A DNA stretch of 64,000 bases from Terriglobia bacterium (GTDB lineage: Bacteria > Acidobacteriota > Terriglobia > Terriglobales > Acidobacteriaceae). Below, one piece after another: positions 22,976-62,818 of this stretch (the stretch's first letter is position 1; each line of letters opens with the position of its first letter). The notes beneath the pieces are model-generated. The model worked only from the letters and a program-made list of their open reading frames with translations, had not been told where the DNA came from and ran no database searches. A program made the position numbers and the translations under genes. Location of the stretch: assembly GCA_020072845.1 (NCBI GenBank), contig JAIQGF010000016.1:124001-188000 (forward strand), read 5' to 3'.

Positions 22976-23083
22976 ATTGGTAATTTGTAATTGGTAATTT
23001 GCAATTGGGGCCGCTGTGGATGTGGTCGTTGCGGCGCTGGGTTGCAAAGCAAATTGCAAATTACAAATTGCAAATTACAAATC
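22976..23083. repeat. 7-bp-period repeat, two inverted arms (nuoF-nuoG gap)
   Basis: The left arm (22976-23006) is built from GTAATTT/GCAATTT heptamers. The right arm (23050-23083) is its near-complement, AAATTGCAAATTACAAATTG and on. The arms enclose about 45 bp of GC-rich sequence. The right arm runs up to the nuoG ATG and covers its ribosome-binding position. Confidence 0.9.
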
Positions 23084-25486
23084 ATGGCAGACGTAAACAT
23101 CACGGTTGACGGCAAGAAGATCACGGCCCCGGCGGGGACGCTGCTGATCGAGGCCTGCAAGTCCGCCGGCATCGAGGTCCCCTCGTTCTGTTACTACCCG
23201 GGGCTGTCGCTGCAGGGCGCGTGCCGCATGTGCCTGGTGCGGATCGAGAAGATGCCGAAGCTGCAGACCGCGTGTACCACGGTGATCAGCGAGGGCATGA
23301 CGGTCAGCAGCGACAACGACGAGGTGCGGCAGGCGCGCAAGGCGATGCTGGAGATGGTGCTCGGCAATCACCCGCTGGACTGCCCGGTATGCGATGCCGG
23401 CGGTGAGTGCGAGTTGCAGGACATGACGTTCACCTACGGCGCCGCCGAGTCCAAGCTGATTGACATCAAGAACCATCGCGACGAGCAGCAGTGGTCGCCG
23501 GTGGTCTACTTTGACCGGCCGCGCTGCATCATGTGCTACCGCTGCGTGCGCGTCTGCGGCGAAGGTATGGACGTGTGGGCGCTGGGCATCCAGAACCGTG
23601 GCTCCGCGCAGGTAATCGCCCCCAACAAGCAAGATTACCTGTGGTGCGAAGAGTGCGGTATGTGCATTGACATCTGCCCCGTGGGCGCGCTCACCAGCGG
23701 GGCCTACCGCTACAAGACGCGCCCCTGGGAGATGCACCACGTCGGCACCATGTGCGCCCACTGCGGCGACGGCTGCAAGACCACGCTGGGGGTGCGGCGC
23801 GCCGACACCGGCATGGACATCGTGCGCGGCGACAACCGCGACAAGAGCGGCATTAACGGCGATTTCCTGTGCGTCAAGGGACGCTACGCCTTCGATTTTG
23901 CTGACGACCCGCGCCGCCTCAAGCAACCCATGATCCGCCGCGAGGGCAAGCTCCAGCCCGCAACCTGGGAAGAAGCCATCGACCTGATTGGCGAACGATT
24001 CAAGCAGATCAAGGACGCCGACGGCGGCCAGGCATTCGGCGTGATCGGCTCCAATCGCACCACCAACGAAGAAAACTATCTGCTGCAGAAATTCGCGCGC
24101 ACCGTGCTGGGCACCAACAACATTGACCACCAACGCACCGCCGATTTCCCCGGGTTCGTGAGCGCGCTAGCCGGACAACCGGGGTCCCAGACGCGCGCCG
24201 ATTTTGTGCGCGGCGGGGTGGAAGATTGCACCGCCAGCATGCGCGACGTCTTCTCGGCGCCGGCCATCCTGGTGATCGGCAACAACCCCACCGACCAGCA
24301 TCCCCTGCTGGCATGGCAGATTCGCAACAATGTTCGCCTGCACCGCGCGCGCTTGTACGTGGTGAATGCCGCTCCTATCAAGCTGCGCCGCCAGGCGGCG
24401 ATCTTCGCGCAGATTTCCGAAGACAACGGCGAGAGCGCGTTCGCGCATTTCCTCGCCGGTAACGAGGCCGCGCCTTCGGGCTTGGCCGCCGGCGAGACCT
24501 CGGCCGAGATTTTGGCGCAACTGCGCGACAAACTTCGCGGCGAGCAGCAACTGGTGGTGGCCTTCGGCTCGGAATTGCGGGCCGGCGGCATCGCTGAACT
24601 GGTGCGCGCGCTGCCCCAGGCGAAGTTCATCTGCCTGGGCGACTACGCCAACTCGCGCGGCGCCGCCGACATGGGCCTGTATCCCGACCTGTTGCCCGGG
24701 TACGTGCCGGTCGCGAACGCGGCAACGAAGGAAGAGTGGTACGCGTCGGCGCCGAACCAGCCCGGGCTTAACTTGCGCCAGATGTTCGAAGCCGCCAGCG
24801 ACGGACGCATCAAGGCGCTGTACATCGTCGGCTCCAACCCGGTGGCGCGTTACGGAATTGACGCCTTCGTCCTGTCCAAGCCGTTCGTGGTGGTGCAGGA
24901 CATGTTCCTGACCGAGACCGCGTTGCCGGCCGACGTGGTTCTGCCGGCAGCCTGCGCCTACGAAAAATCGGGGACGTTTACCAACACCTGCGGCGATCTG
25001 CAGATGTTGCGCAAGGCCGGCGAGGTCGAGGGCGCCAAGTCGGATTTCGAAATCATCGTGCGCATCGCCGGCAAGATTGGCTACGACATCCGGCAGTTGG
25101 TGCCGTTCGGGCGCCCGCTGCGCGCCGACATGGGACAATCACGCGGCGCTCAATCCGGCGAGGCCGACCGCCACGCCGTCTGGCTGGAGCGTCACGGGCT
25201 GGAGCCGAAAATGAGCCCGTTTGACCCGCTGGCCATGCTCGACGAAATTCAGCGCCTCGTCCCCGGCTACGACGTCTCGCGCCTGAACCTGGTCGCGGGA
25301 AACGATGAGCACACCCGCATCGTGCCGGCGAGCAGTCTGCCGAGCCATCCCGAGTTGATCGTGCCCTCCGAGGACACGCTGTTCACCTCGGGAACGCTGG
25401 GACGATATTCGAAAACGCTGAATGCGGTGGTCGAAAACGAACGCAAGCTGCCGGAGGATGAACAGGATCAGGAAGTGGCGGTGTAG
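23084..25486 (+). CDS. nuoG: NADH-quinone oxidoreductase subunit G (75-kDa iron-sulfur)
   Basis: 800 aa from MADVNITVDGKK. An N-terminal [2Fe-2S] domain (CYYPGLSLQGACRMCLV, Cys in QTACTT) is followed by the His-Cys 4Fe-4S site (HPLDCPVCDAGGECELQD). Two ferredoxin-type clusters follow (CIMCYRCVRVCGE and CEECGMCIDICPVGA). The extra N7-like box CAHCGDGCKTTLGV comes next, then a molybdopterin-oxidoreductase-like body with no cofactor expected. The C-terminus has an acidic tail. The start codon is fixed by the upstream repeat. Confidence 0.96.
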   Translation: MADVNITVDGKKITAPAGTLLIEACKSAGIEVPSFCYYPGLSLQGACRMCLVRIEKMPKLQTACTTVISEGMTVSSDNDEVRQARKAMLEMVLGNHPLDCPVCDAGGECELQDMTFTYGAAESKLIDIKNHRDEQQWSPVVYFDRPRCIMCYRCVRVCGEGMDVWALGIQNRGSAQVIAPNKQDYLWCEECGMCIDICPVGALTSGAYRYKTRPWEMHHVGTMCAHCGDGCKTTLGVRRADTGMDIVRGDNRDKSGINGDFLCVKGRYAFDFADDPRRLKQPMIRREGKLQPATWEEAIDLIGERFKQIKDADGGQAFGVIGSNRTTNEENYLLQKFARTVLGTNNIDHQRTADFPGFVSALAGQPGSQTRADFVRGGVEDCTASMRDVFSAPAILVIGNNPTDQHPLLAWQIRNNVRLHRARLYVVNAAPIKLRRQAAIFAQISEDNGESAFAHFLAGNEAAPSGLAAGETSAEILAQLRDKLRGEQQLVVAFGSELRAGGIAELVRALPQAKFICLGDYANSRGAADMGLYPDLLPGYVPVANAATKEEWYASAPNQPGLNLRQMFEAASDGRIKALYIVGSNPVARYGIDAFVLSKPFVVVQDMFLTETALPADVVLPAACAYEKSGTFTNTCGDLQMLRKAGEVEGAKSDFEIIVRIAGKIGYDIRQLVPFGRPLRADMGQSRGAQSGEADRHAVWLERHGLEPKMSPFDPLAMLDEIQRLVPGYDVSRLNLVAGNDEHTRIVPASSLPSHPELIVPSEDTLFTSGTLGRYSKTLNAVVENERKLPEDEQDQEVAV

Positions 25487-25557
25487 GTTTTAGGTTTTCG
25501 GTGGTCGGTTCTCGGTTTTCTGTAGCTAAAAGCTAAGAGCTAAGAGCTAAAAGCTTC
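25484..25557. repeat. 7-bp-period repeats (nuoG-nuoH gap)
   Basis: Two adjoining arrays are seen: TAGGTTT, TAGGTTT, TCGGTGG, TCGGTTC, TCGGTTT; then AGCTAAA, AGCTAAG, AGCTAAG, AGCTAAA. Both have period 7, with different words. The nuoG stop codon lies at the edge of the first. Confidence 0.9.
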
Positions 25558-25558
25558 T

Positions 25559-26602
25559 ATGCCATCTGGCAATCTCAGCCTCGGAACGTTTCTCCTGATC
25601 TCCGTGATCAAGGTCGCGATCGCGATGGGCCTGCTTTTGACTGTGGTGGCCTACACTGTGTGGCTGGAACGCAAGCTGGTGGGCCACATCCAGAACCGTT
25701 GGGGACCCTCGCGCGTGGGCCCGTTCGGGCTGCTGCAACCGATCGCCGACGGCTTAAAGTTGTTCTTTAAGGAAGACCTCACACCTCCTTATGTTCACAA
25801 GACGTTATACCTGCTGGCGCCGATCCTTTCGCTGGCCCTGGCACTGACTTCGATTGCGGTCATCCCCATCGGCGGCTGGATCACGCTGAACGGCGCGCGC
25901 ATTCCGCTGCAGATCACCGACGTCAACGTCGCGCTGCTCATCATCCTCGGCATCACTTCGATGGGGGTGTACGGCGTGGCGCTGGCGGGGTGGTCGTCCA
26001 ACAGCAAGTACTCCCTGCTGGGTTCGCTGCGTGCCAGCGCGCAGATGGTCAGCTACGAGGTTGCGCTTGGGCTGTCGCTGGTGGGCGTGCTCATCCTCTC
26101 CGGGACCTTCAGCCTGCGCAGCATCGTGGAACACCAGTCCGGCGGATTCTGGCACTGGAATATTTTCGGCGGTGGACAGATCGTGGCCTTCTTCATTTAC
26201 CTGTGCGCCGCGTACGCCGAAACCAATCGCATCCCCTTCGATCTGCCGGAAGCGGAGACCGAACTGGTGGCCGGCTATCACACCGAGTACAGCTCCATGA
26301 AGTTCGCCATGTTTTTCATGTCCGAGTACGCCAACATGGTGACGGTCGCCTGCCTGGCGAGCGTGCTGTTCCTTGGGGGTTGGGGCGGGCCGGTCTTCGG
26401 TCCACCCCTGTTGCGCGCGCTGCTGCCGGTGTTGTGGTTTTTCCTGCGCGTCGTGTTCTTCCTGTTTGTTTATATCTGGGTGCGCGGAACGTTGCCGCGC
26501 TTTCGCTATGACCAGTTGATGGGGTTCAGTTGGAAAGTCCTGCTGCCGCTGTCGGTCGCCAACGTGGTGATCACCAGTCTCGTGGTGGCGTTGCGCTCGT
26601 GA
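25559..26602 (+). CDS. nuoH: NADH-quinone oxidoreductase subunit H (cluster 1)
   Basis: 347 aa, eight membrane helices, normal length. Signatures include ERKLVGHIQNRWGPSRVGP, QPIADGLKLFFKED, the charged quinone-channel loop AETNRIPFDLPEAETELVAG and WVRGTLPRFRYDQLM. It is the membrane-arm subunit beside the quinone chamber. It is followed by a 216-bp gap with REP and heptamer repeats where nuoI would normally lie; no nuoI is present. Confidence 0.96.
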   Translation: MPSGNLSLGTFLLISVIKVAIAMGLLLTVVAYTVWLERKLVGHIQNRWGPSRVGPFGLLQPIADGLKLFFKEDLTPPYVHKTLYLLAPILSLALALTSIAVIPIGGWITLNGARIPLQITDVNVALLIILGITSMGVYGVALAGWSSNSKYSLLGSLRASAQMVSYEVALGLSLVGVLILSGTFSLRSIVEHQSGGFWHWNIFGGGQIVAFFIYLCAAYAETNRIPFDLPEAETELVAGYHTEYSSMKFAMFFMSEYANMVTVACLASVLFLGGWGGPVFGPPLLRALLPVLWFFLRVVFFLFVYIWVRGTLPRFRYDQLMGFSWKVLLPLSVANVVITSLVVALRS

Positions 26603-26684
26603 CGTTGGTACTGGCTGTTCGGTTCTTATGACTGATTGTTCGGTACAACTCGGCACTAGCACTGGTTTCAAGAATCGGTTTTCT

Positions 26685-26765
26685 GGGAAGGGCACGGCTT
26701 CAGCCGTGCCGCTCGAGGCCGCAAGAATGGCGGGCTTTAGCCCCTGAGGGACATTTTTCCTGAGG
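26685..26765. repeat. REP-like element in the nuoH-nuoJ gap
   Basis: It includes the hairpin GGGCACGGCTTCAGCCGTGCC (21 nt, quoted here as GGGCACGGCT and AGCCGTGCC arms), followed by GGCGGGCTTTAGCCCCTGAG. It resembles a dispersed intergenic palindrome and occupies the usual position of nuoI. Confidence 0.65.
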
Positions 26766-26786
26766 CGAAAATGTATTTTTGAAACC

Positions 26787-26815
26787 AGTTCTCGGTACTC
26801 AGTACTCGGTACTCA
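26787..26815. repeat. 7-bp-period repeat upstream of nuoJ
   Basis: Heptamers GTTCTCG, GTACTCA, GTACTCG, GTACTCA end 4 bp before the nuoJ ATG. A single arm is present; no complementary arm is obvious. Confidence 0.85.
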
Positions 26816-26818
26816 AAC

Positions 26819-27316
26819 ATGCTTCACTTCGCAATCTTCGCGTTTTTCGGCGCCATCTGTGTGGCGGGCGCCATCAACCTGCTGGCGCAGCGGCACCCCA
26901 TCAGCAGCGCGCTGTCGCTGATCGTGGTAATGGGCTCGCTGGCGGTCGAGTACATGCTGCTGGGCGCCGAGTTCGTCGCCGTGGTGCAGGTGATCATTTA
27001 CGCGGGCGCGATCATGGTGCTGTTCGTTTTTGTCATCATGCTGCTCAATGCCGGCGAGGAGGAACGCAGCCCCGGAAGCCGCATTGCGCTTATCTTCGGC
27101 GTGCCCGGAATGCTGGTGCTGATGGGACTCATCGCATGGGTGCTGATCCGGCAGAACCCGGCATCGGGCTCGGTTTCCGCCGGAGCGCTGCCCGGCACCC
27201 CGCCGGAGATCGGCCGCTTGCTCTTCCGCGATTTCCTGTTGCCCTTTGAAATCACCTCGGTGCTCATCCTGATCGCCATCATGGGCGCCGTGGTGCTGGC
27301 GAGGAGGGAGCGCTGA
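26819..27316 (+). CDS. nuoJ: NADH-quinone oxidoreductase subunit J (cluster 1)
   Basis: 165 aa, five membrane helices. The motif [20 protein letters not shown] with the pi-bulge region is characteristic. Its TGA overlaps the nuoK ATG. This is a small core subunit at the junction of the quinone chamber and the first proton pathway. Confidence 0.94.
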
Positions 27317-27618
27317 TGGTCCCGCTCGCCTACTACCTGTTGCTCAGCGCGGTGCTGTTCGCCTGCGGCGTCGCCGGCTTTCTGATCAAGCGCAACATCA
27401 TCACCATTTTCATGTGCATTGAGCTGATGCTGAACGGCGTGAACCTGGCGTTTGTCGCCTTCGCCGCCCACTGGCGCCAGCTCAACGGACAGGTGTTCGT
27501 GTTTTTCGTCATGGTGGTCGCGGCCGCGGAAGCCGCCGTCGGACTGGCCATCATCATTTCCGTTTTCCGCACCCGCGAGACGCTGAACGTGGACCGGGTG
27601 AATTTGCTGAAATTGTAA
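27316..27618 (+). CDS. nuoK: NADH-quinone oxidoreductase subunit K (cluster 1)
   Basis: 100 aa, three membrane helices. Conserved Glu residues lie in [15 protein letters not shown] and [17 protein letters not shown]. Length is standard. It is translationally coupled to nuoJ and followed by a heptamer-repeat pair before nuoL. Confidence 0.96.
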
Positions 27619-27621
27619 GAA

Positions 27622-27704
27622 GGGTTTTCGGTTGTCGGTTATCGGTTTTCGGTCTTGCGAGCACATGACTTGCTCGCGACTCGGAACTCGCAACTCAGAA
27701 CTCA
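27622..27704. repeat. 7-bp-period repeats, two arms (nuoK-nuoL gap)
   Basis: The left array is TTTTCGG, TTGTCGG, TTATCGG, TTTTCGG. The right array is GCGACTC, GGAACTC, GCAACTC, AGAACTC. A small hairpin, GCGAGCACATGACTTGCTCGC, lies between them (arms GCGAGCA and TGCTCGC). The right array ends at the nuoL ATG. Confidence 0.9.
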
Positions 27705-27705
27705 A

Positions 27706-29915
27706 ATGAACCTCTGGTTAATTCCGCTGCTGCCGATGGCCGGCGCAATTATCAACGGCCTGTTCGGGCGGCGCTTTTCGAAGAACGTGGTGTCGGCGAT
27801 CGGGCTGGCGTTCCCCGGCGCGGCCATGCTGTGGGCGTGGAAGGCGGCGCTGCAATTCGCGCAACTCCCGGCCGGCGCCATCCCGCACATCGAAAATTAC
27901 GGTCCGTGGCTGAGCGCCGGCGATTTCGTTATCAACTACGGCCTCTACCTCGATCAGCTTTCCCTGCTGATGGCGCTCATCGTCACCGGCGTCGGCTTCC
28001 TCATCCACGTTTATTCCGTCGGCTACATGGCGCACGAAGGCGGCTACTACCGCTTCTTCGCCTACATGAACCTGTTCATGTTCTTCATGCTCACGCTGGT
28101 GCTGGCGAACAACTACCTGCTGATGTTCGTGGGATGGGAAGGCGTGGGCCTGGCGTCGTACCTGCTGATCGGCTTCTTCTTCCTGCGCGATTCGGCCGCC
28201 GCTGCGGGCAAGAAAGCATTCATCGTCAATCGCATCGGCGACTTCGGGTTCCTGATCGCTCTGTTCCTGCTGATCAAGAATTTCGGCACGCTCGACTTTA
28301 CCAGCGTCTTCGAAAAAGTTTCCGGGCTGCCCTCGGAAGCGACCGCCGGCCTGCTGACCACCATCGGGCTGCTGCTGCTGGTCGGCGCCTGCGGCAAGAG
28401 CGCGCAGCTACCGCTGTATGTTTGGCTGCCGGACGCGATGGAAGGCCCCACGCCGGTCTCCGCACTCATCCACGCGGCGACCATGGTGACCGCGGGCGTT
28501 TACATGATCGCGCGCTCGCACGCCATCTTCGACCGCGCACCCATCGCGCTCACCGCGGTTGCCATCATCGGCTGCGCCACTGCGCTGTACTCCGCCACTA
28601 TCGGATGCGTGCAGCACGACATCAAGCGCGTGCTCGCCTATTCCACCATCTCGCAGCTCGGCTACATGGTGCTGGCCTGCGGCGTGGCGGCGTATTCGGC
28701 GGGCATGTTCCACCTGTTGACGCACGCGTTCTTCAAGGCGCTGCTCTTCCTCGCCGCCGGTTCCGTCATCCACGCGCTGGGCGGCGAGCAGGACATGCGC
28801 AAGATGGGCGGCCTGCGGCGTCACATCCCCGGAACTTTCTGGACGATGACGGTCGCCACCTTCGCCATCGCCGGCATCTTCCCGCTCTCCGGCTTCTTCT
28901 CCAAGGACGAAATCCTCTACCGCTCCTGGACAAACCATGGCGGCTGGTGGGGATTCTGGGCGGTCGGCGTCTTCTCCGCCTTCCTGACCGCGTTCTACAT
29001 GTTCCGGCTGTGGTTCCTGACTTTCTTCGGCGAAACCCGCGGCGGGAATAGCGCTCCGCCGGCGGCCCGGCACGACCCCGGGCTCGCGGACATCGATTTG
29101 ATCGTGCCCGAACCCCATGTCGCCGCCGTGTTGAAGGAATTGCAGGAGCGGGGAGCGCACGTCCTCGCCGCCACTCCGCAGGGTGATGGCAAGTCGATCC
29201 GGGCGCAGGTTCCAGCCGCCAAGATGATGTACTTCGAGGCGGAGATCCGCGCCATCACCGAGAACAAGGCTTCCATCAGCGTTCGATATGCAGACCAGGA
29301 GCGTGCCGGCCAGGACGCACATAAAGGTCGCATCCACGAGAGCCCGCGCGTGATGCTGATTCCGCTGGTCGTGCTGGCGGTGCTCTCCTTCGCCGGCGGC
29401 TGGATCGGATGGCCGCAAGCGCTCGGCGGGAGCAATCATTTCGAGCACTTCCTCGCGCCTGTTTTTGAAGCGCACGCCACCGCGCCCGAATCCGCTGCCG
29501 CCGGCCCTGTGGCGGGCCATGCGCCCTCGGAGATCACCCTCACGATGGCCGCCACCGGCGCGGCGCTGCTCGGCATCGCGCTTGCCTGGTTGATGTACTA
29601 CAGGCGCCGCGAATTGCCGGAGAAATTGCGCCAGCGCTTCCAGGGCGTCTATACCGCGCTGGAACACAAGTATTACGTGGACGAAATTTATGACTGGCTG
29701 TTGGTGCGGCCGATTATCGAAGGCTCGCGCAACATCCTGTGGCGGGTGATTGACGCCGGCGCCATCGACGGCACCTTCAACGAATCTGCCGAGGCGGCGC
29801 GCGACGTCTCCAACAGCGTGCGCCGCATGCAGTCGGGCAACATTCGCTCCTACGCCGGTTGGGTGGCGCTGGGCGGCGCCGCCGTGGTCGCGTACATGGT
29901 TTGGCTGGGTGTGAA

Positions 29916-29919
<4 letters not shown>
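27706..29919 (+). CDS. nuoL: NADH-quinone oxidoreductase subunit L (cluster 1) with inserted EF-G domain V-like segment
   Basis: 737 aa. Residues 1-450 are the antiporter-like core, with GWEGVGLASYLLIGFFF, KSAQLPLYVWLPDAMEGPTP, HAATMVTAGVYM and SKDEIL. Residues about 460-531 form a soluble insert that is not part of usual NuoL (DIDLIVPEPHVAAVLKEL, then GKSIRAQVPAAKMMYFEAEI and RAITENKASISVRYADQ). It aligns by eye with the last domain of elongation factor G: VPE start, R-G turn, AxVP, M, the L/I-R-x-(L/I)-T helix, and K/R-AS. The membrane part then resumes at HESPRVMLIPLVVLAVLSF and ends with the lateral helix and C-terminal anchor. The nuoM start overlaps its stop as ATGA. Confidence 0.93.
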
Positions 29920-31420
<1,501 letters not shown>

Positions 31421-31424
<4 letters not shown>

Positions 31425-33560: not shown

Positions 33561-33600
33561 CGCTAATAGCAAATTGCTAATCGCTAATTGCTAATTGCTC
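33561..33600. repeat. 7-bp-period repeat at the permease remnant
   Basis: Heptamers GCAAATT, GCTAATC, GCTAATT, GCTAATT. It abuts the broken end of the permease remnant and precedes the atpE terminator hairpin. Confidence 0.88.
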
Positions 33601-34043: not shown

Positions 34044-34130
34044 GCAGTTTCTAGTTACCAGTTTCTGGTTTCTAGTGCTCACACCGCGACAGCCGACTAG
34101 AAACCAGAAACTCGAAACTAGAAACTAGTG
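34044..34130. repeat. 7-bp-period repeats, two inverted arms (atpB-atpE gap)
   Basis: The left arm is AGTTTCT, AGTTACC, AGTTTCT, GGTTTCT, AGTG. The right arm is ACTAGAA, ACCAGAA, ACTCGAA, ACTAGAA, ACTAGTG. The arms are complementary across about 25 bp. The stop codon of atpB (34125-34127) is formed by the repeat itself. Confidence 0.92.
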
Positions 34131-34876: not shown

Positions 34877-34900
34877 AGTTGCTGGTTTCTAGTTTCTAGA
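34877..34900. repeat. Short 7-bp-period repeat upstream of atpB
   Basis: CTGGTTT, CTAGTTT, CTAG: two and a half heptamers using the same word family as the array at 34044-34130. Confidence 0.7.
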
Positions 34901-34909: not shown

Positions 34910-35347
34910 CTACAAACCGCGGCGCAGCGAGACCACAACTTCATATACCGCTTCGCAGAGAATCGCCGCCACGGTCAGAAACAGGCCGCCCAGAAGCCCG
35001 TAGAGGCTGTCCCGGGAAACTCTGAATATAGCATAGCCGGCGAGCGCGATTAAAGCGTAGCGCAGCAGGAAACGCGCCACCACGCCGCCGCTCGACTGCT
35101 TGCGCCCGGTGCTGGTGACGCGGTCGGCGAGCGCGCTCACCGCCTGCTTCAGCCAGTAAAAATTCACCCACGCGATCCCGCACCCCAGCGCCAAGCCGGC
35201 GCCGACCTTCCAGCCGAAGAAGATCGAAACGACCGCGGTGGCGACCACGCCGATGGCGGCCATGAAGCGGCGAATGCGGTCCAGGGCGCCGGAGTAGAAC
35301 CGCTCGGCGGCCGCGTCCGAAGTTGCGGCGCTGGAATCGTTAGACAA
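34910..35347 (-). CDS. ATP synthase subunit I-like protein
   Basis: 145 aa with a TTG start at 35347. Four hydrophobic segments are arranged as two pairs (AIGVVATAVVSIFFGWKVGA, ALGCGIAWVNFYW, then YALIALAGYAIF and LLGGLFLTVAAILCEAVYEV). This matches the small subunit I family encoded ahead of atpB, which helps c-ring assembly and Mg handling in other bacteria. The start codon abuts an 8-bp-period repeat; an internal start is possible. Confidence 0.75.
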   Translation of the reverse strand: MSNDSSAATSDAAAERFYSGALDRIRRFMAAIGVVATAVVSIFFGWKVGAGLALGCGIAWVNFYWLKQAVSALADRVTSTGRKQSSGGVVARFLLRYALIALAGYAIFRVSRDSLYGLLGGLFLTVAAILCEAVYEVVVSLRRGL

Positions 35348-35349
35348 TT

Positions 35350-35462
35350 TGGTAATTTCGTAAGTTCGTAAATTGGTAATTTGAAAATTCGGCGAGCGCC
35401 ATGCCTGCTGATCTCGCCTTGGGTTTTCAAATTACCAAATTACGAATTTACCAAATTACTAA
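35350..35462. repeat. 8-bp-period repeats, two inverted arms (upstream of the subunit I gene)
   Basis: The left arm uses TTGGTAAT, TTCGTAAG, TTCGTAAA, TTGGTAAT. The right arm uses AAATTACC, AAATTACG, AATTTACC, AAATTACT. They are near-complements separated by about 50 bp. Confidence 0.9.
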
Positions 35463-35510
35463 ATCCCTGTTATGCCGTACTTCTCCTCGAAGATGGCAGC
35501 AAATCAGACT

Positions 35511-35801
35511 TCACTGCTTCGATTCCGACGACATGACCGTGCGAATCAGCTCAACAAATCCCGCGGCGATGCCGGCGATCAGGCCCACCAGGTAAATCCA
35601 GGTCGTGTGCAGCCAGTGGTCCAGCGCCACCCCGGCCAGCCATCCGACCACCGTGCACGCCGGCAGCACGAAGGCAAGCTGGCTGTAGCGGGCAACAGCA
35701 ATGAAGAAACTTCTCTTGCCCGCGCGGTCGTCATTAGTCGCTGGTCGTTGGTCGTTGGCCGTGCCGTCGTCGTTAGTCGTTGGTCGTTTGTCGTTGGCCA
35801 T
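35511..35801 (-). CDS. atpZ: AtpZ/AtpI-family F0 accessory protein
   Basis: 96 aa from MANDKRPTTNDDG at 35801; a longer open frame to 35867 exists. Two membrane helices are seen (LAFVLPACTVVGWLAGVALD and TWIYLVGLIAGIAAGFVELI), the usual AtpZ hairpin. The first 25 residues (NDKRPTTNDDGTANDQRPA) are low complexity because they are translated from a 7-bp-period repeat array. The true start could be further inside. It heads the four-gene F0 block downstream of nuoN cluster 2. Confidence 0.75.
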   Translation of the reverse strand: MANDKRPTTNDDGTANDQRPATNDDRAGKRSFFIAVARYSQLAFVLPACTVVGWLAGVALDHWLHTTWIYLVGLIAGIAAGFVELIRTVMSSESKQ

Positions 35802-35858
35802 GCCGAATCCAGTTTCCAGTTTCCGCTTTCCCGTTTCCAGCGGAAAACGAAAACCCCG
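35725..35858. repeat. 7-bp-period repeats overlapping the atpZ start
   Basis: Words such as TTAGTCG, CTGGTCG, TTGGTCG, TTGGCCG, then TTAGTCG, TTGGTCG, TTTGTCG, TTGGCCA, and further CCAGTTT, CCAGTTT, CCGCTTT, CCCGTTT. Part is translated as the N-terminus of AtpZ. Confidence 0.88.
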
Positions 35859-35914: not shown

Positions 35915-37468
35915 CTACCGCAGGAAGCCGAGCAACCCCGTTCCCACCTGCTGGATTCCGAGCGACCAGCCGGCGGCGCGGATGAAAAATTCCGGGAATA
36001 TTCCGATGCCGACGGTGCCGATGGCAGTCACGGCGAGCGCGACTTGCATGCCCGGGCTGATCACCACCGGCTCGGCATCGGTCGCCGGGCGCATGAACAT
36101 CGCGTTTGCGATCCGCATGTAGTAATAGAGCCCGAGCACCGCGTACAGCACGGCCAGGCTGGCGAGCACATAATGCTGCGTCTGGATCAGGCTGAGGAAG
36201 ATGAAGTACTTGCCGTAGAAGCCCGCCAGCGGCGGGATTCCGGCCAGCGACAGCAGGAACAGCAGCATGAGCACGGCTTCTGTGGGCGCCTTGAAGTAGA
36301 GGCCGGCGATGTCGTCAATCTCGTCGCCGATGATGGCGCGACGCCGCAGCGATGTAACCACCGCGAACGCGCCCAGGTTCATGAACGTGTACACCAGCAG
36401 GTACACCAGGATGCCCTGGATGCCGGTCTTGTTGGTGATGTTGTCGCTGGCGATCAGGCCGAGCAGCATGTAGCCGACGTGCGAGATGGAGCTGTAGGCG
36501 AGCAGGCGCTTGAGGTTGGTCTGGGTGAGCGCGGCGAAGTTGCCGCCGGTCATGGTGGCGATGGCGACAAACACCAGCAGCGGCAGGTACACCGGGCGCA
36601 GCGGATACAGTCCCCAAAGGAAAATCCGCAGCAGCATCGCCCAGGCCGCCGCCTTCACCGCCACGGACATGTAGCCGGTGACGCTGGTGGGCGCCCCTTC
36701 ATAGGCGTCGGGCGCCCATTGATGGAACGGGACAGCGGCGATCTTGAACAGCAGCCCGGTCGCGGTGGTAATCATGGCGACGATGGCGATCGGGTCCCTG
36801 GGATTCACGTTGTAGTGCCGCTGCAGCGCCTGCGCGATCACGTGCAGGTTGGTGCTGCCGGAAAGCCCGTAGAGCAGCGAGAGCCCGTAGGCGAAGATGC
36901 CGCTGGAGAACGCGCCCAGCAGCAGGTACTTCAGCGCGGCTTCATTGGACCGCTTGTCGCGGCGCAGGAATCCGACCAGAACGTAGGTGGAGATGGCCAT
37001 CAGTTCCAGGCCGATGAACAGCAGCACCACGTCGTAGCCGCTGGCCATGCACATCATGCCGACCACGGAGAACAGGATGAGCGCGTAGAACTCGCCGTGG
37101 TGCTCGTGCTCGATTTCCAGGTAATGCGCCGACATCAGGATGGCGATCGCGGCGCCCACCAGGAACAGGTAGAAGAAATAAATGGCGAAGCCGTCCATCA
37201 GCACCGATCCGACCACCTGGCCGCCCACGTTGGACAGGTAAGCGAAGCTGCCGACCAGCGAACGTCCGTCGGCGAAGTGGCCAAGGTGAATGCGAATCAC
37301 CGCCGCGGTCGAGAAGCCGATGCCGAGCAGCGCGGTGATGGCGTTCCAGCGCTTCCACTCGGCGGGCAGCATGAGGTCGATGATCAGCACGCCGAGGCCG
37401 AACAGCGAGAGCAAAATCATGGGCAGCGACAGCGCGTAGTCGGTGCCGGTAAAGAATGAGGTAGGCAC
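35915..37468 (-). CDS. nuoN: NADH-quinone oxidoreductase subunit N (cluster 2)
   Basis: 517 aa, an antiporter-like membrane subunit. Markers are DVVLLFIGLELMAISTYVLV, KIAAVPFHQWAPDAYEGAPT, LKRLLAYSSISHVGYMLLG and GIPPLAGFYGKYFIFL. It is distinct from cluster 1 NuoN in sequence and is slightly longer. It is the last nuo gene of cluster 2. The F0 genes follow on the same strand after 113 bp. Confidence 0.96.
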   Translation of the reverse strand: MPTSFFTGTDYALSLPMILLSLFGLGVLIIDLMLPAEWKRWNAITALLGIGFSTAAVIRIHLGHFADGRSLVGSFAYLSNVGGQVVGSVLMDGFAIYFFYLFLVGAAIAILMSAHYLEIEHEHHGEFYALILFSVVGMMCMASGYDVVLLFIGLELMAISTYVLVGFLRRDKRSNEAALKYLLLGAFSSGIFAYGLSLLYGLSGSTNLHVIAQALQRHYNVNPRDPIAIVAMITTATGLLFKIAAVPFHQWAPDAYEGAPTSVTGYMSVAVKAAAWAMLLRIFLWGLYPLRPVYLPLLVFVAIATMTGGNFAALTQTNLKRLLAYSSISHVGYMLLGLIASDNITNKTGIQGILVYLLVYTFMNLGAFAVVTSLRRRAIIGDEIDDIAGLYFKAPTEAVLMLLFLLSLAGIPPLAGFYGKYFIFLSLIQTQHYVLASLAVLYAVLGLYYYMRIANAMFMRPATDAEPVVISPGMQVALAVTAIGTVGIGIFPEFFIRAAGWSLGIQQVGTGLLGFLR

Positions 37469-37479
37469 TCTTGCTTCCC

Positions 37480-39123
37480 CTAATTCGTCCTGACCGCCGC
37501 AATCGCGGGGGGCAGGGGCTTGGAGCTGGTTGTCGCCGGAGCGGCCGGCTTGCTTGCCGGAGCTGGCTCAATTTTTGCCGGAGCCGGTTGGACCGCCAGC
37601 ACCGGCTTCATCTCATCCGGACGAACCGTCTGCACCAGTTGCGCCACCGGCTGCTGCAGGATCTGGAACATCGGCTTGGGATAAATTCCGATAAACAGCG
37701 CGGCGGCGATCAGCGGAGCGAACGTCAGGATTTCGCGCGGCGTCAGGTCCTGCAGCTTCTCGTTTTTCGGATTCGTCACCGCTCCGAAGAAGACGCGCTG
37801 GTACAGCCAGAGCAGGTACGCGGCCGCCAGGATCACGCCCGGCACCGCCCACGCCGCCCACGCCTTGCTCTCGATAAACGTTCCTTGCAGGATGGTGAAC
37901 TCGCCGATGAACCCGTTGAGCAGCGGCAGGCCCATCGAGGACAGGAACATGATCATGGTGATGGTGGCGTACACCGGCATGACGTTGGAAATGCCGCCGT
38001 ACTCCGAGATCTCGCGGGTGTGGCGCCGCTCGTAAAGAATGCCGACGATCAAGAACAGCGCGCCGGTCGAGATGCCGTGATTGATCTGCTGAATCACCGA
38101 CCCGGCCAGCCCCGCCTGGTTCACCACGAAAATTCCCAGCGTGCAGAAACCGAGGTGGCTCACCGAGCTGTACGCCACCAGCTTCTTCATGTCTTTCTGC
38201 ATCAGGGAGACGAGCGCGCCGTAGATGATGCCCACGATCGACAGCCCAATCACAAAGCTTCGCACCTTGGGTTGCATGGCGACGCCGGGGAAGAACGGCA
38301 GCGAGAAGCGGATGAAGCCGTACGTTCCCATCTTCAGCAGGACGCCCGCCAGGATCACCGAGCCCGCGGTGGGCGCCTCCACGTGCGCGTCCGGAAGCCA
38401 GGTATGGAAGGGGAACATCGGCACCTTAATGGCGAAGCCGACGAAGAAGGCGAAGAACAGTACGATGGCGGCCGTACCCGTGATCTGCGGCGCCGTCTTG
38501 TACAGCTCAGGAATGGCAAAGGTGTACACGCCGGTGACGGTGTGGTGGTGGAAGTAGAGGAACAGGATGCCCAACAGCATCAGCACCGAGCCGAACAACG
38601 TGTACAAAAAGAACTTGATCGCCGCGTAGAGCTTGCGCGGGCCGCCCCAGATGCCGATCAGCAGGTACATCGGGACCAGCATCGCTTCCCAGAAGACGAA
38701 GAACAGGAACATGTCCAGCGCCATGAAGACGCCGAGCATGCCCGTCTGCAGCAACAGGAACCAGATGTAGTATTCCTTCACCCGGTCCTGAATCGCTTCC
38801 CACGAAGACAGGATGGAAATCCATCCCAGCAGCGTGGTCAGGATGATCAGCAGGAAGCTGATGCCGTCGATGCCCAGGTAATAGCCGGCGCCGATGGACG
38901 GAATCCAGGTGTTGGCCGCGCCCTCGATGAACTTGAACCCCGGCTGGTCTTTGACCGCCCAGAACATCGGGATCAGCGGAATGGACACCGCCAGCCCGGC
39001 CAGCGCGAAGATATTCGCCACCCAGCGGATGGCATTCTTGTTCTCCTTAGGCATGAACAGGAGAACGACGGCGCCCACCGCGGGCGTGAACAGAATGATG
39101 GAGAGGATGTGGTCGTTAAACAT
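37480..39123 (-). CDS. nuoM: NADH-quinone oxidoreductase subunit M (cluster 2), Ala/Pro-rich tail
   Basis: 547 aa. The 14-helix antiporter core has FFVFWEAMLVPMYLLIGIWG, IKVPMFPFHTWLPDAHVEAP and LVAYSSVSHLGFCTLG. About 55 residues after the last helix (QTVRPDEMKPVLAVQPAPAK and on) are an Ala/Pro/Lys-rich extension not seen in cluster 1 NuoM. It is followed by nuoN 11 bp later. Confidence 0.95.
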   Translation of the reverse strand: MFNDHILSIILFTPAVGAVVLLFMPKENKNAIRWVANIFALAGLAVSIPLIPMFWAVKDQPGFKFIEGAANTWIPSIGAGYYLGIDGISFLLIILTTLLGWISILSSWEAIQDRVKEYYIWFLLLQTGMLGVFMALDMFLFFVFWEAMLVPMYLLIGIWGGPRKLYAAIKFFLYTLFGSVLMLLGILFLYFHHHTVTGVYTFAIPELYKTAPQITGTAAIVLFFAFFVGFAIKVPMFPFHTWLPDAHVEAPTAGSVILAGVLLKMGTYGFIRFSLPFFPGVAMQPKVRSFVIGLSIVGIIYGALVSLMQKDMKKLVAYSSVSHLGFCTLGIFVVNQAGLAGSVIQQINHGISTGALFLIVGILYERRHTREISEYGGISNVMPVYATITMIMFLSSMGLPLLNGFIGEFTILQGTFIESKAWAAWAVPGVILAAAYLLWLYQRVFFGAVTNPKNEKLQDLTPREILTFAPLIAAALFIGIYPKPMFQILQQPVAQLVQTVRPDEMKPVLAVQPAPAKIEPAPASKPAAPATTSSKPLPPAIAAVRTN

Positions 39124-39127
39124 TTCT

Positions 39128-39166
39128 TTTTAGCTCTCAGCTATCAGCTACCAGCCTTCAGCCGTT
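39128..39166. repeat. 7-bp-period repeat (nuoL-nuoM gap, cluster 2)
   Basis: AGCTCTC, AGCTATC, AGCTACC, AGCCTTC, AGCCG: one arm, the same word family as the array at 41382-41446. Confidence 0.88.
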
Positions 39167-39190
39167 GACTTCATCGTTGCCCGCCGCCAA

Positions 39191-41380
39191 TCAGCGGGCG
39201 ACGTAATAAATCACGAAACCGACAACGCCGCCGACCATGACCAGCGCGTACCACTGCACCAGGCCCCATTGCACCAGGCGCACCGGGTAGGAAAGCAGTC
39301 GCGTCAAGATCGCCGGGCCGTTGACCAGCAAGCCGTCAATGATCCATGTGTCCCACCACTTCGAAACTGTCCCCATGGCGCGCGTCAGCCAGCCCGCGCC
39401 GTTGACGCCGCCGTCAATCACGTTGGCGTCGAACTTGAATGACGCCTCCCCGAGACCCATCGCGCCCAGGCGTATGGGCCCGATCGGACGGCGGCCGGTG
39501 AAGGCATAATCGTAGGCTTCGTCCACGTAATACTTGTTCAGCAACAGCGCATACGCCGGCGGAGCGACCGCGTTGATGGGCTCGACAAATCCCTTCTCAG
39601 CCTTCTTGTAAAAGTACTTCGCGACCCCCCACCCAATGAATCCGAGCGCCACCGAAAGCGCCATCAGGATGTACTCGATTGCCTCGGTCTTTTCTTCCTT
39701 GCCTTCGGGTTTGGGCATGGCAGCGGCGGTCTCGGCTGTGCGCGCGCCGGCCTGCTCGGCATGCTCGCTCAGCGCAGGAAGTGCATGCCCGGCTTCGGCG
39801 GTGACGCTTTCGGTTGCGAACACCGGCTCCAGGAAACGCTCGAAGGCGTTGGTTCCGCCCAGCGCCTTGGGGACCCCGAGCCACCCCGCGGTAACGGAGC
39901 CGATGGCGAGGATGATCAGTGGCACGGTCATGGTTTTCGGCGACTCGTGCACGTGGTGCTCGACCTCGTGGGTCATCCGGCTGGGGCTCCAGAACGTCAG
40001 GTAAATCAGCCGGAACATGTAGAACGCGGTCATCAGCGCGGCGAAAAAGCCGACATACCACAGCGCGCGGAAGCCGCCGCCGTGCGACGAGTACGCCTGC
40101 CACAGAATTTCGTCTTTCGAGAAGAAGCCCGCCAGCGGCGGAATGCCGGCAATGGCCAGCGTTCCGATGAGCATGGTTTTGTACGTCGTCGGAATGCGCT
40201 TCGACAGGTCGCCCATGTTGCGCATGTCCTGCTCGCCGCTGAGCGCGTGGATCACCGAGCCGGAACCGAGGAACAGCAGCGCCTTGAAGAAGGCGTGCGT
40301 GAACACGTGGAACACGCCGGCGGCAAACGCACCCACGCCCAGCGCCAGGAACATGTATCCGAGCTGCGACACGGTGGAGTAGGCGAGCACGCGCTTGATG
40401 TCGTTCTGCACCAGGCCGATGGAGGCGGCGAAGATGGCGGTCAGCGCGCCGATGATGGCCACGGTCTTCATGCTGGTCGGCGCCAGCATGAACAGCGCGT
40501 TGGAACGCGCCACCATGTACACGCCCGCGGTCACCATCGTGGCCGCGTGGATGAGCGCGGAAACCGGCGTTGGGCCTTCCATGGCATCGGGCAGCCAGAC
40601 ATAAAGAGGAAACTGCGCCGATTTGCCGCAGGCGCCGATGAACAGCATCAGAGTGGCGAAAGTAATCACCGGATCGCCCACCGCGAAGTGGCTGGTCTGC
40701 AGCGTGTGCGTGATGTCGGTGAAGCGCACCGAGCCGAAGTACCAGGCCAGGGTCAGCATGCCCATCAGGAACCCGGCGTCGCCGATGCGGTTGACGATGA
40801 ATGCCTTGTTGGCGGCGGTCGAAGCGGAATGTTTCTTGAACCAGAACCCGATCAGCAGGTACGAGCATAGGCCCACGCCTTCCCACCCGACGAACAGCAT
40901 CGTGTAGTTGTTCCCCAGGACGAGCGTGAGCATGGAGAACATGAACAGGTTCATGTAGCCGAAGAAGCGGTAGTAGCCGCCTTCGTGGGCCATGTAGCCG
41001 ATGGAGTAGATGTGGATCAGCATGCCCACGCCGGTCACAAACAGCAGCCAGATGGCGGAGAGCGGGTCGAGCAGGAAGCCGGCGTCGGCGTTGAACTGGA
41101 ATGGCCCATGCGCGCCGGGCAGCAGGATTGGGTGCTGCGCATCGCCGCTGCCGAGCCAGGTGTAGAGGATGGTTTGGTACGGCCCGTTATTGTGCGCCGG
41201 CTGCCAGGTCTGCGTGTACTGCCATACCGCCAGGCACGACCAGGCGAAGGCGATCACGACCGTGCCGACGCAGAAAGCGTTCACCGCTTTCTTGTCCAGC
41301 TTGCGGCCGACGAAGAACATCACCGCCGCGCTGAAGATCGGCAGCAGCGGAATGACCCAGATGTGATCGAGAAAGAACAT
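39191..41380 (-). CDS. nuoL: NADH-quinone oxidoreductase subunit L (cluster 2)
   Basis: 729 aa. The core has FVGWEGVGLCSYLLIGFWFK, KSAQFPLYVWLPDAMEGPTP, HAATMVTAGVYMVARS and FSKDEILW. The loop where cluster 1 NuoL has its EF-G-like insert is short here (WSPSRMTHEVEHHVHESPKT), the ordinary form. The region before the lateral helix holds a charged Ala/Glu linker (residues about 550-590). It ends with a C-terminal anchor helix. Confidence 0.96.
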   Translation of the reverse strand: MFFLDHIWVIPLLPIFSAAVMFFVGRKLDKKAVNAFCVGTVVIAFAWSCLAVWQYTQTWQPAHNNGPYQTILYTWLGSGDAQHPILLPGAHGPFQFNADAGFLLDPLSAIWLLFVTGVGMLIHIYSIGYMAHEGGYYRFFGYMNLFMFSMLTLVLGNNYTMLFVGWEGVGLCSYLLIGFWFKKHSASTAANKAFIVNRIGDAGFLMGMLTLAWYFGSVRFTDITHTLQTSHFAVGDPVITFATLMLFIGACGKSAQFPLYVWLPDAMEGPTPVSALIHAATMVTAGVYMVARSNALFMLAPTSMKTVAIIGALTAIFAASIGLVQNDIKRVLAYSTVSQLGYMFLALGVGAFAAGVFHVFTHAFFKALLFLGSGSVIHALSGEQDMRNMGDLSKRIPTTYKTMLIGTLAIAGIPPLAGFFSKDEILWQAYSSHGGGFRALWYVGFFAALMTAFYMFRLIYLTFWSPSRMTHEVEHHVHESPKTMTVPLIILAIGSVTAGWLGVPKALGGTNAFERFLEPVFATESVTAEAGHALPALSEHAEQAGARTAETAAAMPKPEGKEEKTEAIEYILMALSVALGFIGWGVAKYFYKKAEKGFVEPINAVAPPAYALLLNKYYVDEAYDYAFTGRRPIGPIRLGAMGLGEASFKFDANVIDGGVNGAGWLTRAMGTVSKWWDTWIIDGLLVNGPAILTRLLSYPVRLVQWGLVQWYALVMVGGVVGFVIYYVAR

Positions 41381-41381
41381 T

Positions 41382-41446
41382 TTAGCTCTCAGCTATCAGC
41401 TATCAGCTTTCGGCCGTCGACTGCCGACCGTCGACCGTCGACCGAT
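41382..41446. repeat. 7-bp-period repeats (nuoK-nuoL gap, cluster 2)
   Basis: Two word families follow each other: AGCTCTC, AGCTATC, AGCTATC, AGCTTTC, then GTCGACT, GCCGACC, GTCGACC, GTCGACC. Confidence 0.9.
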
Positions 41447-41751: not shown

Positions 41752-41762
41752 CTTTTTCTCAT

Positions 41763-41844
41763 TTGTCGACGGTCGACAGTCGACGGTCGACTTCAAAATC
41801 CTTGCCTTGGCGGCCGCCGGCCGTAGACCGTCGACCGTAGACCG

Positions 41845-41846
<2 letters not shown>
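41763..41846. repeat. 7-bp-period repeats (nuoJ-nuoK gap, cluster 2)
   Basis: GTCGACG, GTCGACA, GTCGACG, GTCGACT on the left; GTAGACC, GTCGACC, GTAGACC on the right. Each word is largely self-complementary (GTCGAC). The nuoJ stop codon is inside the right array. Confidence 0.9.
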
Positions 41847-42350
<504 letters not shown>

Positions 42351-42354
<4 letters not shown>

Positions 42355-48514: not shown

Positions 48515-48602
48515 TCACCACCGAGCCACCGAGATCACCGCGGCGCGCCGAGAAGAAGGAATTCTCGGTGAATCTCGGTGCCCTCGGTGACTCGGTGGTG
48601 AA
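48515..48602. repeat. 9-bp-period inverted repeat after lysS
   Basis: The left arm CACCACCGAGCCACCGAGAT, with CACCG, is complementary to the right arm built on ATCTCGGTG, CCCTCGGTG, ACTCGGTGG. The distal half of the 282-bp gap (48603-48777) shows nothing recognisable. Confidence 0.8.
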
Positions 48603-59881: not shown

Positions 59882-59966
59882 TTCTAACATTGCCGAATTG
59901 CGGTACTGCCGAATTGCCGAATTGATATTCAACGACAATTCCGCAATTCTGCAGTTCCGCAATCAG
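59882..59966. repeat. 8-bp-period repeats, two inverted arms
   Basis: The left arm is GCCGAATT, GCGGTACT, GCCGAATT, GCCGAATT. The right arm is AATTCCGC, AATTCTGC, AGTTCCGC, AATC. The arms are complementary around ATATTCAACGAC. The right arm ends at the stop of the hydrolase gene. Confidence 0.92.
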
Positions 59967-60757: not shown

Positions 60758-60763
60758 GAAATA

Positions 60764-60845
60764 GAAAGGCGTTAGGTTTTAGGCTTTGGGTTTTGGGTTC
60801 AACGTTTTACGCCACAAGCCTAACGCCTAAGGCCCAAAGCCTGGA
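60764..60845. repeat. 7-bp-period repeats, two inverted arms
   Basis: The left arm is TTAGGTT, TTAGGCT, TTGGGTT, TTGGGTT. The right arm is AAGCCTA, ACGCCTA, AGGCCCA, AAGCCTGG. Complementary across about 20 bp. It fills the gap between the PspC-type gene and the hydrolase gene. Confidence 0.92.
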
Positions 60846-60847
60846 GG

Positions 60848-61235: not shown

Positions 61236-61352
61236 AGCAGTCTTCAGTCGTCAGTCTTCAGTCGTCAGCAACAGCCAATTCCGAAAGTCCTCTGGGAAAA
61301 CAAATTCGAGCGCCACACGCCTGAAGACTGACGACTGAAGACTGACGACTAC
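61236..61352. repeat. 7-bp-period repeats, two inverted arms
   Basis: The left arm is AGTCTTC, AGTCGTC, AGTCTTC, AGTCGTC. The right arm is CTGAAGA, CTGACGA, CTGAAGA, CTGACGA. They are exact complements over about 28 bp with 60 bp between them. It is the cleanest example in the window; the stop codon of the TPR gene abuts it. Confidence 0.95.
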
Positions 61353-62597: not shown

Positions 62598-62789
62598 CGC
62601 TGTGGCCTTTGCGCAGTTTACCTGATGGGCGCCGCCGGCCAAAAGCAGGTACAAACGTCCCCGCTTCGCAGAGGTACTAAAACGGCATGCTTCAGTTCTG
62701 AGTTTCGAATTCCGGAATCCCGCCTTTTGCATTTCGTTGCGACGAATCGGGCCTCTTCACCCTGCCGTACTCCGGCTTTCGCTCACAAC

Positions 62790-62818
62790 TCGCAACTCGC
62801 AACTCGCAACTCACTCAG
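62790..62818. repeat. 7-bp-period repeat in the 62598-62966 gap
   Basis: ACAACTC, GCAACTC, GCAACTC, GCAACTC, then ACTCAGTACTC. The rest of this 369-bp gap holds no gene; the segment 62850-62900 could carry the promoter of the next gene, but no clear boxes are seen. Confidence 0.85.

What the first reader, a model, noticed from the sequence alone, without database searches (positions are those of the whole stretch)
22976..62818. About 17 boundary loci made of degenerate 7-bp-period repeats, each with its own word and often two inverted arms
Arrays with a 7-bp (sometimes 8 or 9) period appear at 22976, 25484, 26787, 27622, 33561, 34044, 34877, 35350, 35725, 39128, 41382, 41763, 48515, 59882, 60764, 61236 and 62790. 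Words differ per locus, for example GTAATTT, AGCTAAA, GTACTCG, GTCGACC and AGTCTTC. Many loci carry a second arm that is the reverse complement with the same period. Most lie inside operons, so they are not simply terminators. Several provide stop codons (atpB, nuoJ) or abut or extend start codons (nuoG, nuoL, nuoK, atpZ). They recall the heptamer STRR repeats of filamentous cyanobacteria. A mechanism that builds locus-specific heptamers and copies them as an inverted arm would be new to me.
Basis: seen in the sequence. Interest (0 to 1): 0.8.

Follow-up and report, generated by a model that had tools for sequence, protein, structure and literature searches.

The report
Paired heptamer arrays at gene boundaries
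This Acidobacteria-like bacterium carries hundreds of short seven-letter repeat arrays wedged between its genes, often as matching inverted pairs that can form hairpins; related species keep arrays at about half of the same junctions but often with a different repeated word, so the arrays seem to be rewritten rather than simply inherited.

Summary
In detail: all 17 sites hold period-7 or period-8 arrays, 8 of 17 with a same-word inverted partner. In 1.2 Mb of the same genome 208 period-7 and 59 period-8 arrays lie between genes; Markov controls give almost none. Words are not private to a locus: 250 period-7 arrays use 88 of 1172 word classes under one degenerate grammar (core RRYY kept, linker free). 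Lengths favour whole cores, mode five; the exact 7n+4 steps were not reproduced in congeners. Within 30 nt of a gene end arrays read outward are keto-rich (74:18 at stops, 34:12 at starts); farther away 22:27. A same-word inverted partner exists for 76 of 204 arrays (control 3%). In 29 of 56 junction comparisons congeners also have an array, and 16 of those 29 share no word; in some, both arms and the period changed. Arm mismatches show no G-U preference, and variant order is not mirrored between arms. Best reading: array pairs regenerated at DNA level by core-primed slippage plus inverted template switching, filtered by neighbouring genes. Heptamer arrays, even inverted pairs, are published for Xanthomonas and Nostoc; the many-word grammar and word replacement look new. 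Function unproven.

The parts
22976..23008 (+). keto-type arm after nuoF stop, word GTAATTK, period 7 (14)
23049..23082 (+). inverted amino-type arm, touches nuoG ATG; RNA fold z -7.1 for the pair
25484..25520 (+). keto-type array GGTTTTC/AGGTTTT, holds the nuoG stop
25524..25555 (+). AGCTAAR array before nuoH; different word, pair does not fold better than shuffles (z -0.19)
26786..26815 (+). single array GTACTCR before nuoJ; a dispersed MITE-like repeat lies just upstream
27623..27653 (+). keto-type array GGTTNTC after nuoK
27673..27703 (+). ACTCGSA array touching nuoL start; different word, part-complementary (z -2.7)
33562..33599 (.). single array GCTAATT in a convergent region
34046..34076 (-). 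arm AGTTTCT, atpB-atpE junction
34096..34128 (-). inverted arm that holds the atpB stop codon; pair folds at z -8.7
34877..34899 (-). single array before atpB start
35346..35382 (-). period-8 arm AATTTCGT beside ORF 34910-35347 (no family match; atpI/atpZ by position only)
35428..35464 (-). period-8 inverted arm CAAATTAC; pair folds at z -9.5
35716..35805 (.). long array GTCGTTR with 39-bp higher-order unit
35808..35840 (.). array CCAGTTT, another word
39132..39155 (-). single array AGCTATC, nuoL2-nuoM2 junction
41384..41408 (-). array AGCTATC before nuoL2
41410..41444 (-). array TCGACCG after nuoK2, next to the former
41765..41791 (-). arm GTCGACG
41821..41849 (-). inverted arm CCGTAGA with the nuoJ2 stop; pair folds at z -4.0
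48518..48542 (+). second class (CCACCGAG, period 8), amino-rich arm first
48564..48597 (+). second class, inverted arm CTCGGTG
59889..59924 (-). period-8 arm ATTGCCGA
59936..59963 (-). period-8 inverted arm; pair folds at z -6.5
60767..60799 (-). arm AGGTTTT/AGGCTTT
60816..60842 (-). inverted arm AAGCCTA; pair folds at z -3.2; T-rich stretch follows on the transcript strand
61238..61268 (-). arm CAGTCKT
61317..61350 (-). inverted arm GACTGAMG; pair folds at z -6.8
62782..62812 (.). single array CTCGCAA in a divergent region

Best explanation
These are regenerating array pairs. Shown: arrays are strings of a kept core of about 4 nt (RRYY, its first three letters most strictly) set 7 (or 6, 8) nt apart by a freer linker, mostly about five cores long, at gene junctions; more than a third have a same-word inverted partner; congeners also have arrays in about half of the junction comparisons, and in about half of those with another word or period, both arms changed in the clearest cases. 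Inferred: a DNA-level process writes them. During replication or repair a 3' end realigns through the core (slippage), which adds one linker plus one core each time and lets the linker drift; now and then the end switches to the opposite strand and starts the same word inverted. Repeated rounds keep units alike in both arms and can replace the word. Arrays inside genes are lost through frameshift; next to genes, selection keeps the orientation that fits a stop codon (TRR) or leaves an A/C-rich leader before a start. The stem-loops may then be useful in mRNA, but this is not shown.
For: Core kept, linker free: change rates between neighbouring units for M N R R Y Y R are .235 .33 .14 .113 .117 .202 .252; in three congeners, with the matrix learned in G000.224 .303 .191 .142 .101 .23 .299. 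Max/min ratio 2.92, random phases at most 1.73 in 300. Copies peak at 4.5 (109 of 323; 3.5: 57; 5.5: 27); lengths have clear peaks at 24-25 and 30-32 nt and a weak one near 37-39; array ends start and stop at the core more than simulated random ends (p 5.6e-6, 5e-4; length mod 7 p 1.9e-6). Same-word inverted partner 76 of 204, control 3.1%, direct copy 5 of 204. Retention: 29 of 56 comparisons where G000 has an array, 5 of 42 where it has none (Fisher p 3.7e-5). Of the 29, 13 share a word, 12 differ in word, 4 in period. Arms are more alike within a genome than between genomes in 5 of 6 loci or 6 of 8. atpB-atpE: GTTTCTA in both arms in two species, GTTGTCA in both arms of a third. L116:16215 goes from period 7 to two different period-8 pairs. 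Arm mismatches G-U 29, A-C 24 on the mRNA strand. Polarity only near genes: 108:30 within 30 nt, 22:27 beyond.
Against: The order of linker variants is not mirrored between arms (score 19.35, unit-permuted 18.79, p 0.26, 26 pairs), so single-event copying of an arm is not seen. The 7n+4 steps were not reproduced in 52 arrays of congeners (length mod 7 p 0.53), although 30-33 nt is again the commonest length (20 of 52). 128 of 204 arrays have no inverted partner at the laxest threshold. In the fourth species the atpB-atpE arms share only the AGTT/AACT core, and with G001 this locus is kept (second arm identical), not replaced. A kept core could equally mark selection for binding. Congeners are so diverged that replacement in place cannot be told from loss plus new gain. 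No enzyme was identified: SbcD, whose absence would permit hairpins, is over the cut-off in none of 41 genomes, array-poor ones included, and the model passes its cut-off in only 8 of 14 controls.
Confidence: 0.42

Rival explanations
1. Selected RNA stem-loops between genes, working like REP/BIME elements: the hairpin blocks exonucleases, or couples translation of neighbouring genes because the first arm follows the stop and the second touches the next start.
For: 7 of 9 window pairs tested fold far better than shuffles (z -3.2 to -9.5); 114 of 192 arrays lie within 12 nt of a gene end, expected 58.5 sd 5.5; fewer array regions per kb between divergent genes (0.65 against 1.28 and 1.31).
Against: No G-U over A-C preference (29:24, modest power). 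Convergent stop-stop regions have as many arrays as co-directional ones. Most arrays have no partner. The nuoG-nuoH pair does not fold (z -0.19).
Confidence: 0.21
2. Binding-site arrays (iterons) for a DNA- or RNA-binding protein that reads an RRYY-type core and needs about five sites.
For: Core conserved and linker freer; mode of about five cores and phased ends in G000.
Against: 88 word classes in one genome and word or period change at the same junction in congeners are hard for one protein; arms share the locus word rather than one genome-wide word; phasing not reproduced in congeners.
Confidence: 0.17
3. Small mobile elements whose inverted ends are heptamer arrays, inserted at gene ends.
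For: Shared vocabulary genome-wide; inverted ends; in many two-array regions arm-spacer-arm fills the intergenic region.
Against: Only 6 of 37 spacers have a similar stretch elsewhere in 1.2 Mb, part of them other repeats. Y1/RAYT-type transposases are in 33 of 41 genomes, including array-poor ones.
Confidence: 0.08
4. Ordinary passive slippage: microsatellites with no further mechanism.
For: Heptamer excess in bacterial SSRs is known (Mrazek 2007, seen only as cited in PMC4692102).
Against: Uneven change rates within the unit, outward polarity near genes and inverted partners; copy number peaked at 4.5 rather than falling off.
Confidence: 0.12

Closest known systems
GGGAATC / GGGGA(C/T)T heptamer repeats of Xanthomonas and Nostoc (PMC4692102; passages and Discussion seen)
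   Different: One word family studied per genome, tied there to G-quadruplexes; here 88 word classes, most without G runs, and words replaced between congeners. That paper too reports length and sequence variation between close relatives.
TAACTGA direct repeats of Beggiatoaceae, Cyanobacteria, Bacteroidetes (PMC4679880; abstract and sections 8 and 10 read)
   Same: Period 7, intergenic, close before start codons, fits the grammar (AACTGAT; matrix score above 96.8% of heptamers). Mixed heptamers are mentioned for Microcystis.
   Different: One dominant word, similar words rare as repeats in the Beggiatoa genome, one indirect repeat reported; translational regulation proposed.
STRR repeats of heterocystous cyanobacteria (recalled; only a mention of three Calothrix heptanucleotides in PMC4692102 seen)
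   Same: Tandem heptamers.
   Different: Words and arms not compared here; not tested.
REP/BIME and REPIN elements (search listings only: PMC3116915, PMC3733652; features recalled)
   Same: Intergenic inverted arms, likely mRNA hairpins.
   Different: No tandem unit there, fixed palindrome families; here no common palindrome.
Template-switch mutation that creates and maintains hairpins (PMC8794818, abstract read)
   Same: Can create an inverted arm and keep arms alike.
   Different: Studied in RNA genes; no tandem heptamer units.

Membership tests
Intergenic heptamer arrays (Xanthomonas/Nostoc/Beggiatoa kind) | Tandem 7-nt units, over-represented against other periods | tested here: met
Intergenic heptamer arrays (Xanthomonas/Nostoc/Beggiatoa kind) | Intergenic placement | tested here: met
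   208 of 250 period-7 arrays outside called genes, which cover about 87%
Intergenic heptamer arrays (Xanthomonas/Nostoc/Beggiatoa kind) | One dominant word per genome | tested here: not met
   88 word classes in 250 arrays; largest class 15
Intergenic heptamer arrays (Xanthomonas/Nostoc/Beggiatoa kind) | G-quadruplex-forming G runs | tested here: not met
   most listed words lack GGG or CCC; quadruplex folding itself not tested
Cyanobacterial STRR | Same words as the published STRR types | not tested
   words only recalled; 150 kb of a Trichormus plasmid held 5 period-7 arrays
REP/BIME | Conserved palindromic unit in high copy | tested here: not met
   88 word classes; spacers with a similar stretch elsewhere 6 of 37
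REP/BIME | RAYT (Y1) transposase linked to the repeat | tested here: inconclusive
   9 Y1 matches in this genome but also many in array-poor relatives; linkage to arrays not examined
Intrinsic terminators | Stem followed by a T run | tested here: not met
   7 of 8 same-word pairs of the window have at most 4 T in 8 bases after the second arm, 1 (60767) has 6; the pattern scan takes only loops of 3-8
Known structured RNA | Rfam match at gathering score | tested here: not met
   only a tRNA in 21000-64000

The most novel reading that the evidence does not exclude
A dedicated array-writing activity, telomerase-like in logic (analogy recalled, not tested): an enzyme extends 3' ends at gene junctions by repeated realignment through a core of about 4 nt, writes GT-rich heptad arrays from both sides of a gap (hence convergent keto-rich arms of about five cores), and rewrites them with new words in each lineage. 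The same activity would underlie the heptamer arrays of Xanthomonas, Nostoc and Beggiatoa: all 5 published words I tried hold RRYYR, as 33% of heptamers do, though only TAACTGA scores high on the matrix (96.8th percentile; the other four lie at the 69th to 75th). The lack of polarity far from genes speaks against it.
Probability: 0.09. Interest if true: 0.88.

Novelty: new variant of a known kind. Interest (0 to 1): 0.6.

Why it matters
Heptamer excess in bacterial intergenic DNA has been noted since 2007 (as cited in PMC4692102) without an accepted explanation. This genome has about one intergenic array per 4 kb with many words, which makes rules visible: core and linker, a preferred size, outward polarity near genes, and replacement of the word, in places in both arms, at kept junctions. 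Together they turn an old curiosity into a testable question: which replication or repair process writes seven-letter units, and do the resulting hairpins shape operon expression?

Tried and rejected
Unique word per locus: rejected. Mirrored copying of an arm: not supported. RNA-pair selection through G-U tolerance: no sign (only 53 G-U or A-C mismatches in co-directional pairs). Terminators: no T run in 7 of 8 window pairs; the scan (17 found, shuffles 16.7) cannot see long loops. Known RNA: none. Dispersed mobile unit: spacers mostly unrelated. Polarity as a property of the hairpin itself: rejected, because two-array regions with both arms over 8 nt from genes are 3 KM, 3 MK and 1 MM. Arrays seeded from stop codons: among keto-type arrays within 14 nt of a stop, 27 of 71 use the stop's RR as the core (10 expected), but none of the non-overlapping ones among the 24 examples printed is locked, so this may only follow from having to hold a stop. 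Exact 7n+4 steps as a general rule: not reproduced in congeners. Universal grammar: strong in this genus (57 of 80 and 30 of 35 distinct words hold RRYYR, null 33%), weak elsewhere (18 of 37; 11 of 18; 5 of 10; 3 of 4). Missing SbcD and Y1 transposases as specific cause: no association seen. Breadth: 62 of 80 named nuoL loci have no period-7 array; an AATTNG-type pattern matches in 15 of 61 genomes, this one included, its reversed control in none. The pattern AGTCNTC x3 matches 86 times here (reversed control 1) and in 6 other genomes, but its reversed control matches in 10 of 61 genomes, more often than the pattern itself in some (G001, G026, G056), so beyond this genome it is no clean marker. 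SARP-type heptamer operators (PMC5930380, listing only) were considered, not tested. Literature: four terms, no paper; one paper, on REPs; 28 papers with two of five terms, 8 listed; none of what was listed describes such arrays in Acidobacteria.

Dropped rows: in polarity counts 17 of 204 arrays with under 1 bit between orientations; 4 of 208 intergenic arrays without a called gene on both sides. The grammar was learned on all 250 period-7 arrays, 42 of them inside called genes. Genes were called by my own codon-usage script. In the 1.2 Mb scan 25 of 49 period-6 and 15 of 17 period-9 arrays lie inside called genes and are likely coding repeats.
Full report
Where it is. The window is contig C16, 124001-188000, of an unnamed 4.23-Mb genome. 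Named matches of its NuoL are mostly Acidobacteriota, up to 70% identical. Genes around the arrays are two nuo clusters, atp genes, a lysS-like gene and others. Three genomes of the same genus (G001-G003, NuoH 91, 87, 87%) were available.

Is it real. All 17 places show 7- or 8-bp arrays. A stricter self-match scan finds 17 period-7 and 2 period-8 segments in the window, on 12 of the 17 places, and none for periods 4-6, 9-13, 15 and 17-19; lags 14 and 16 give 10 and 2. In 400 kb of the genome the counts are 91, 23 and 17 for periods 7, 8 and 6; Markov controls, run for periods 6, 7, 8, 9 and 11 only, give 0-1. A laxer scan of 1.2 Mb finds 250, 67, 49 and 17 arrays of period 7, 8, 6 and 9. By their middle, 208 of 250, 59 of 67, 24 of 49 and 2 of 17 lie outside called genes (about 13% of the sequence): 293 intergenic arrays, about one per 4 kb.

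Words. The 250 period-7 arrays fall into 88 of 1172 classes (rotations and strands merged). Aligning all by phase and strand gives one degenerate unit, M N R R Y Y R, at 5.13 bits against 3.61 (sd 0.08, maximum 3.73 of 20) for letter-shuffled words. RRY changes least between neighbouring units (.14.113.117), the next Y .202 and R .252, M .235, and N most (.33), without transition bias (100 transitions, 202 transversions). In G001-G003 the same matrix gives .191 .142 .101 for RRY and .303 for N, and 30 of 35 distinct words hold RRYYR (null 33%). Farther away the grammar is weak (18 of 37, 11 of 18, 5 of 10, 3 of 4).

Size. Copy number is 4.5 in 109 of 323 lax intergenic arrays, 3.5 in 57, 5.5 in 27; lengths peak at 24-25 and 30-32 nt, weakly at 37-39. 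Simulated arrays with random ends do not give this phasing. In 52 arrays of congeners 30-33 nt is again commonest (20 of 52), but length mod 7 is flat (p 0.53). So the preferred size is repeated, the whole-core steps are not.

Arms. 76 of 204 intergenic arrays have an inverted partner of the same word within 200 nt of the same region; arrays of other loci match there in 3.1% of trials, direct copies occur for 5. In 37 regions with two arrays the words differ by 0-1 base in 26; random K/M pairs 7.8%. In inverted pairs the first arm is keto-rich in 84 of 103 (17 amino-rich, 2 ties), in congeners 27 of 32 (4, 1 tie), in other genera of the family 7 of 9, in the named loci 20 of 26, in G062 5 of 8, in G063 2 of 2; none were found in G061 or the Trichormus stretch. 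Two of the three G062 exceptions are of a second word class (CACAAAG/CACCAAG) with the opposite order.

Polarity. Read outward from the nearest gene end, arrays within 30 nt are keto-type 74:18 at stops and 34:12 at starts; beyond 30 nt 22:27 (one search agrees). Of 34 typed two-array regions 29 are KM, 3 MK, 1 KK, 1 MM; in congeners 11 of 11 are KM. Regions with both arms over 8 nt from genes show no order (3 KM, 3 MK, 1 MM). Arrays lie within 12 nt of a gene end in 114 of 192 cases, 58.5 expected. Regions with a period-7 array: 103 of 471 co-directional, 29 of 121 convergent, 24 of 146 divergent, or 1.28, 1.31 and 0.65 per kb.

Turnover. In 98 orthologous junction comparisons, where G000 has an array the congener also has one in 16 of 23 (G001), 10 of 24 (G002) and 3 of 9 (G003); where G000 has none, in 3 of 14, 2 of 25 and 0 of 3 (29 of 56 against 5 of 42, p 3.7e-5). 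Of the 29 with arrays in both, 13 share a word, 12 have another word of the same period, 4 another period. Where hairpins were found in both, arms are more alike within than between genomes in 5 of 6, or 6 of 8 with a laxer search. At atpB-atpE two species have GTTTCTA in both arms, a third GTTGTCA in both, and in the fourth the arms share only the AGTT/AACT core.

Against my reading. Linker variants are not mirrored between arms. G-U and A-C mismatches are about equal (29:24), which weakens the RNA rival but has modest power. More than half of the arrays are unpaired. The nuoG-nuoH pair does not fold. The size steps do not repeat in congeners. Congeners are too far apart to see single events.

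Known and new. Heptamer arrays with convergent inverted pairs and the same outward orientation are published for Xanthomonas and Nostoc (PMC4692102, passages and Discussion seen), a one-word type for Beggiatoaceae (PMC4679880, abstract and two sections), and template switching as a maker of hairpins is described (PMC8794818, abstract). In three searches I saw no paper on such arrays in Acidobacteria. New here, as far as these searches go: many words under one purine-pyrimidine grammar, core-linker structure, loss of polarity away from genes, and replacement of words and periods at kept junctions.

Mechanism. I favour a DNA-level writer: realignment through the core gives the units, template switching gives the inverted arm, neighbouring genes filter orientation. 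The patterns are shown; the process is inferred.

Noticed in passing
window 26655-26790: Dispersed MITE-like repeat (ends GGTTTC.../...GAAACC) just upstream of the nuoJ array; one full-length copy at 92% and partial copies in the 1.2-Mb sample, 10 matches in all; one match, L130:18100-18186, lies in the spacer of an array pair.
   Followed up: partly
window 48518-48597; L245 and L246: A second array class (CACCGAG/CACAAAG, period 8; TCCTCTGTG, period 9, at window 35889 may belong to it) with the opposite arm order, amino-rich first.
   Followed up: partly
L115:8111-8250, L118:2797, L124:8352 and others: Hexamer arrays AGTTTC/GAAACT in several places, kept at one junction in G001 (L186:12972).
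   Followed up: no
window 21502-31424 and 35915-45992: Two nuo gene clusters in opposite orientation with F0 ATP synthase genes between them.
   Followed up: no
G000 and 40 relatives: No SbcD match over the family cut-off in any of 41 genomes (8 have weak matches, G000 none); of 14 control genomes 13 ring, 8 over the cut-off.
   Followed up: no
L116:19218 and its orthologs: A hairpin AAAGGGGCACATCGCTGTGCCCC stays nearly unchanged in G001 and G002 beside arrays that differ.
   Followed up: no
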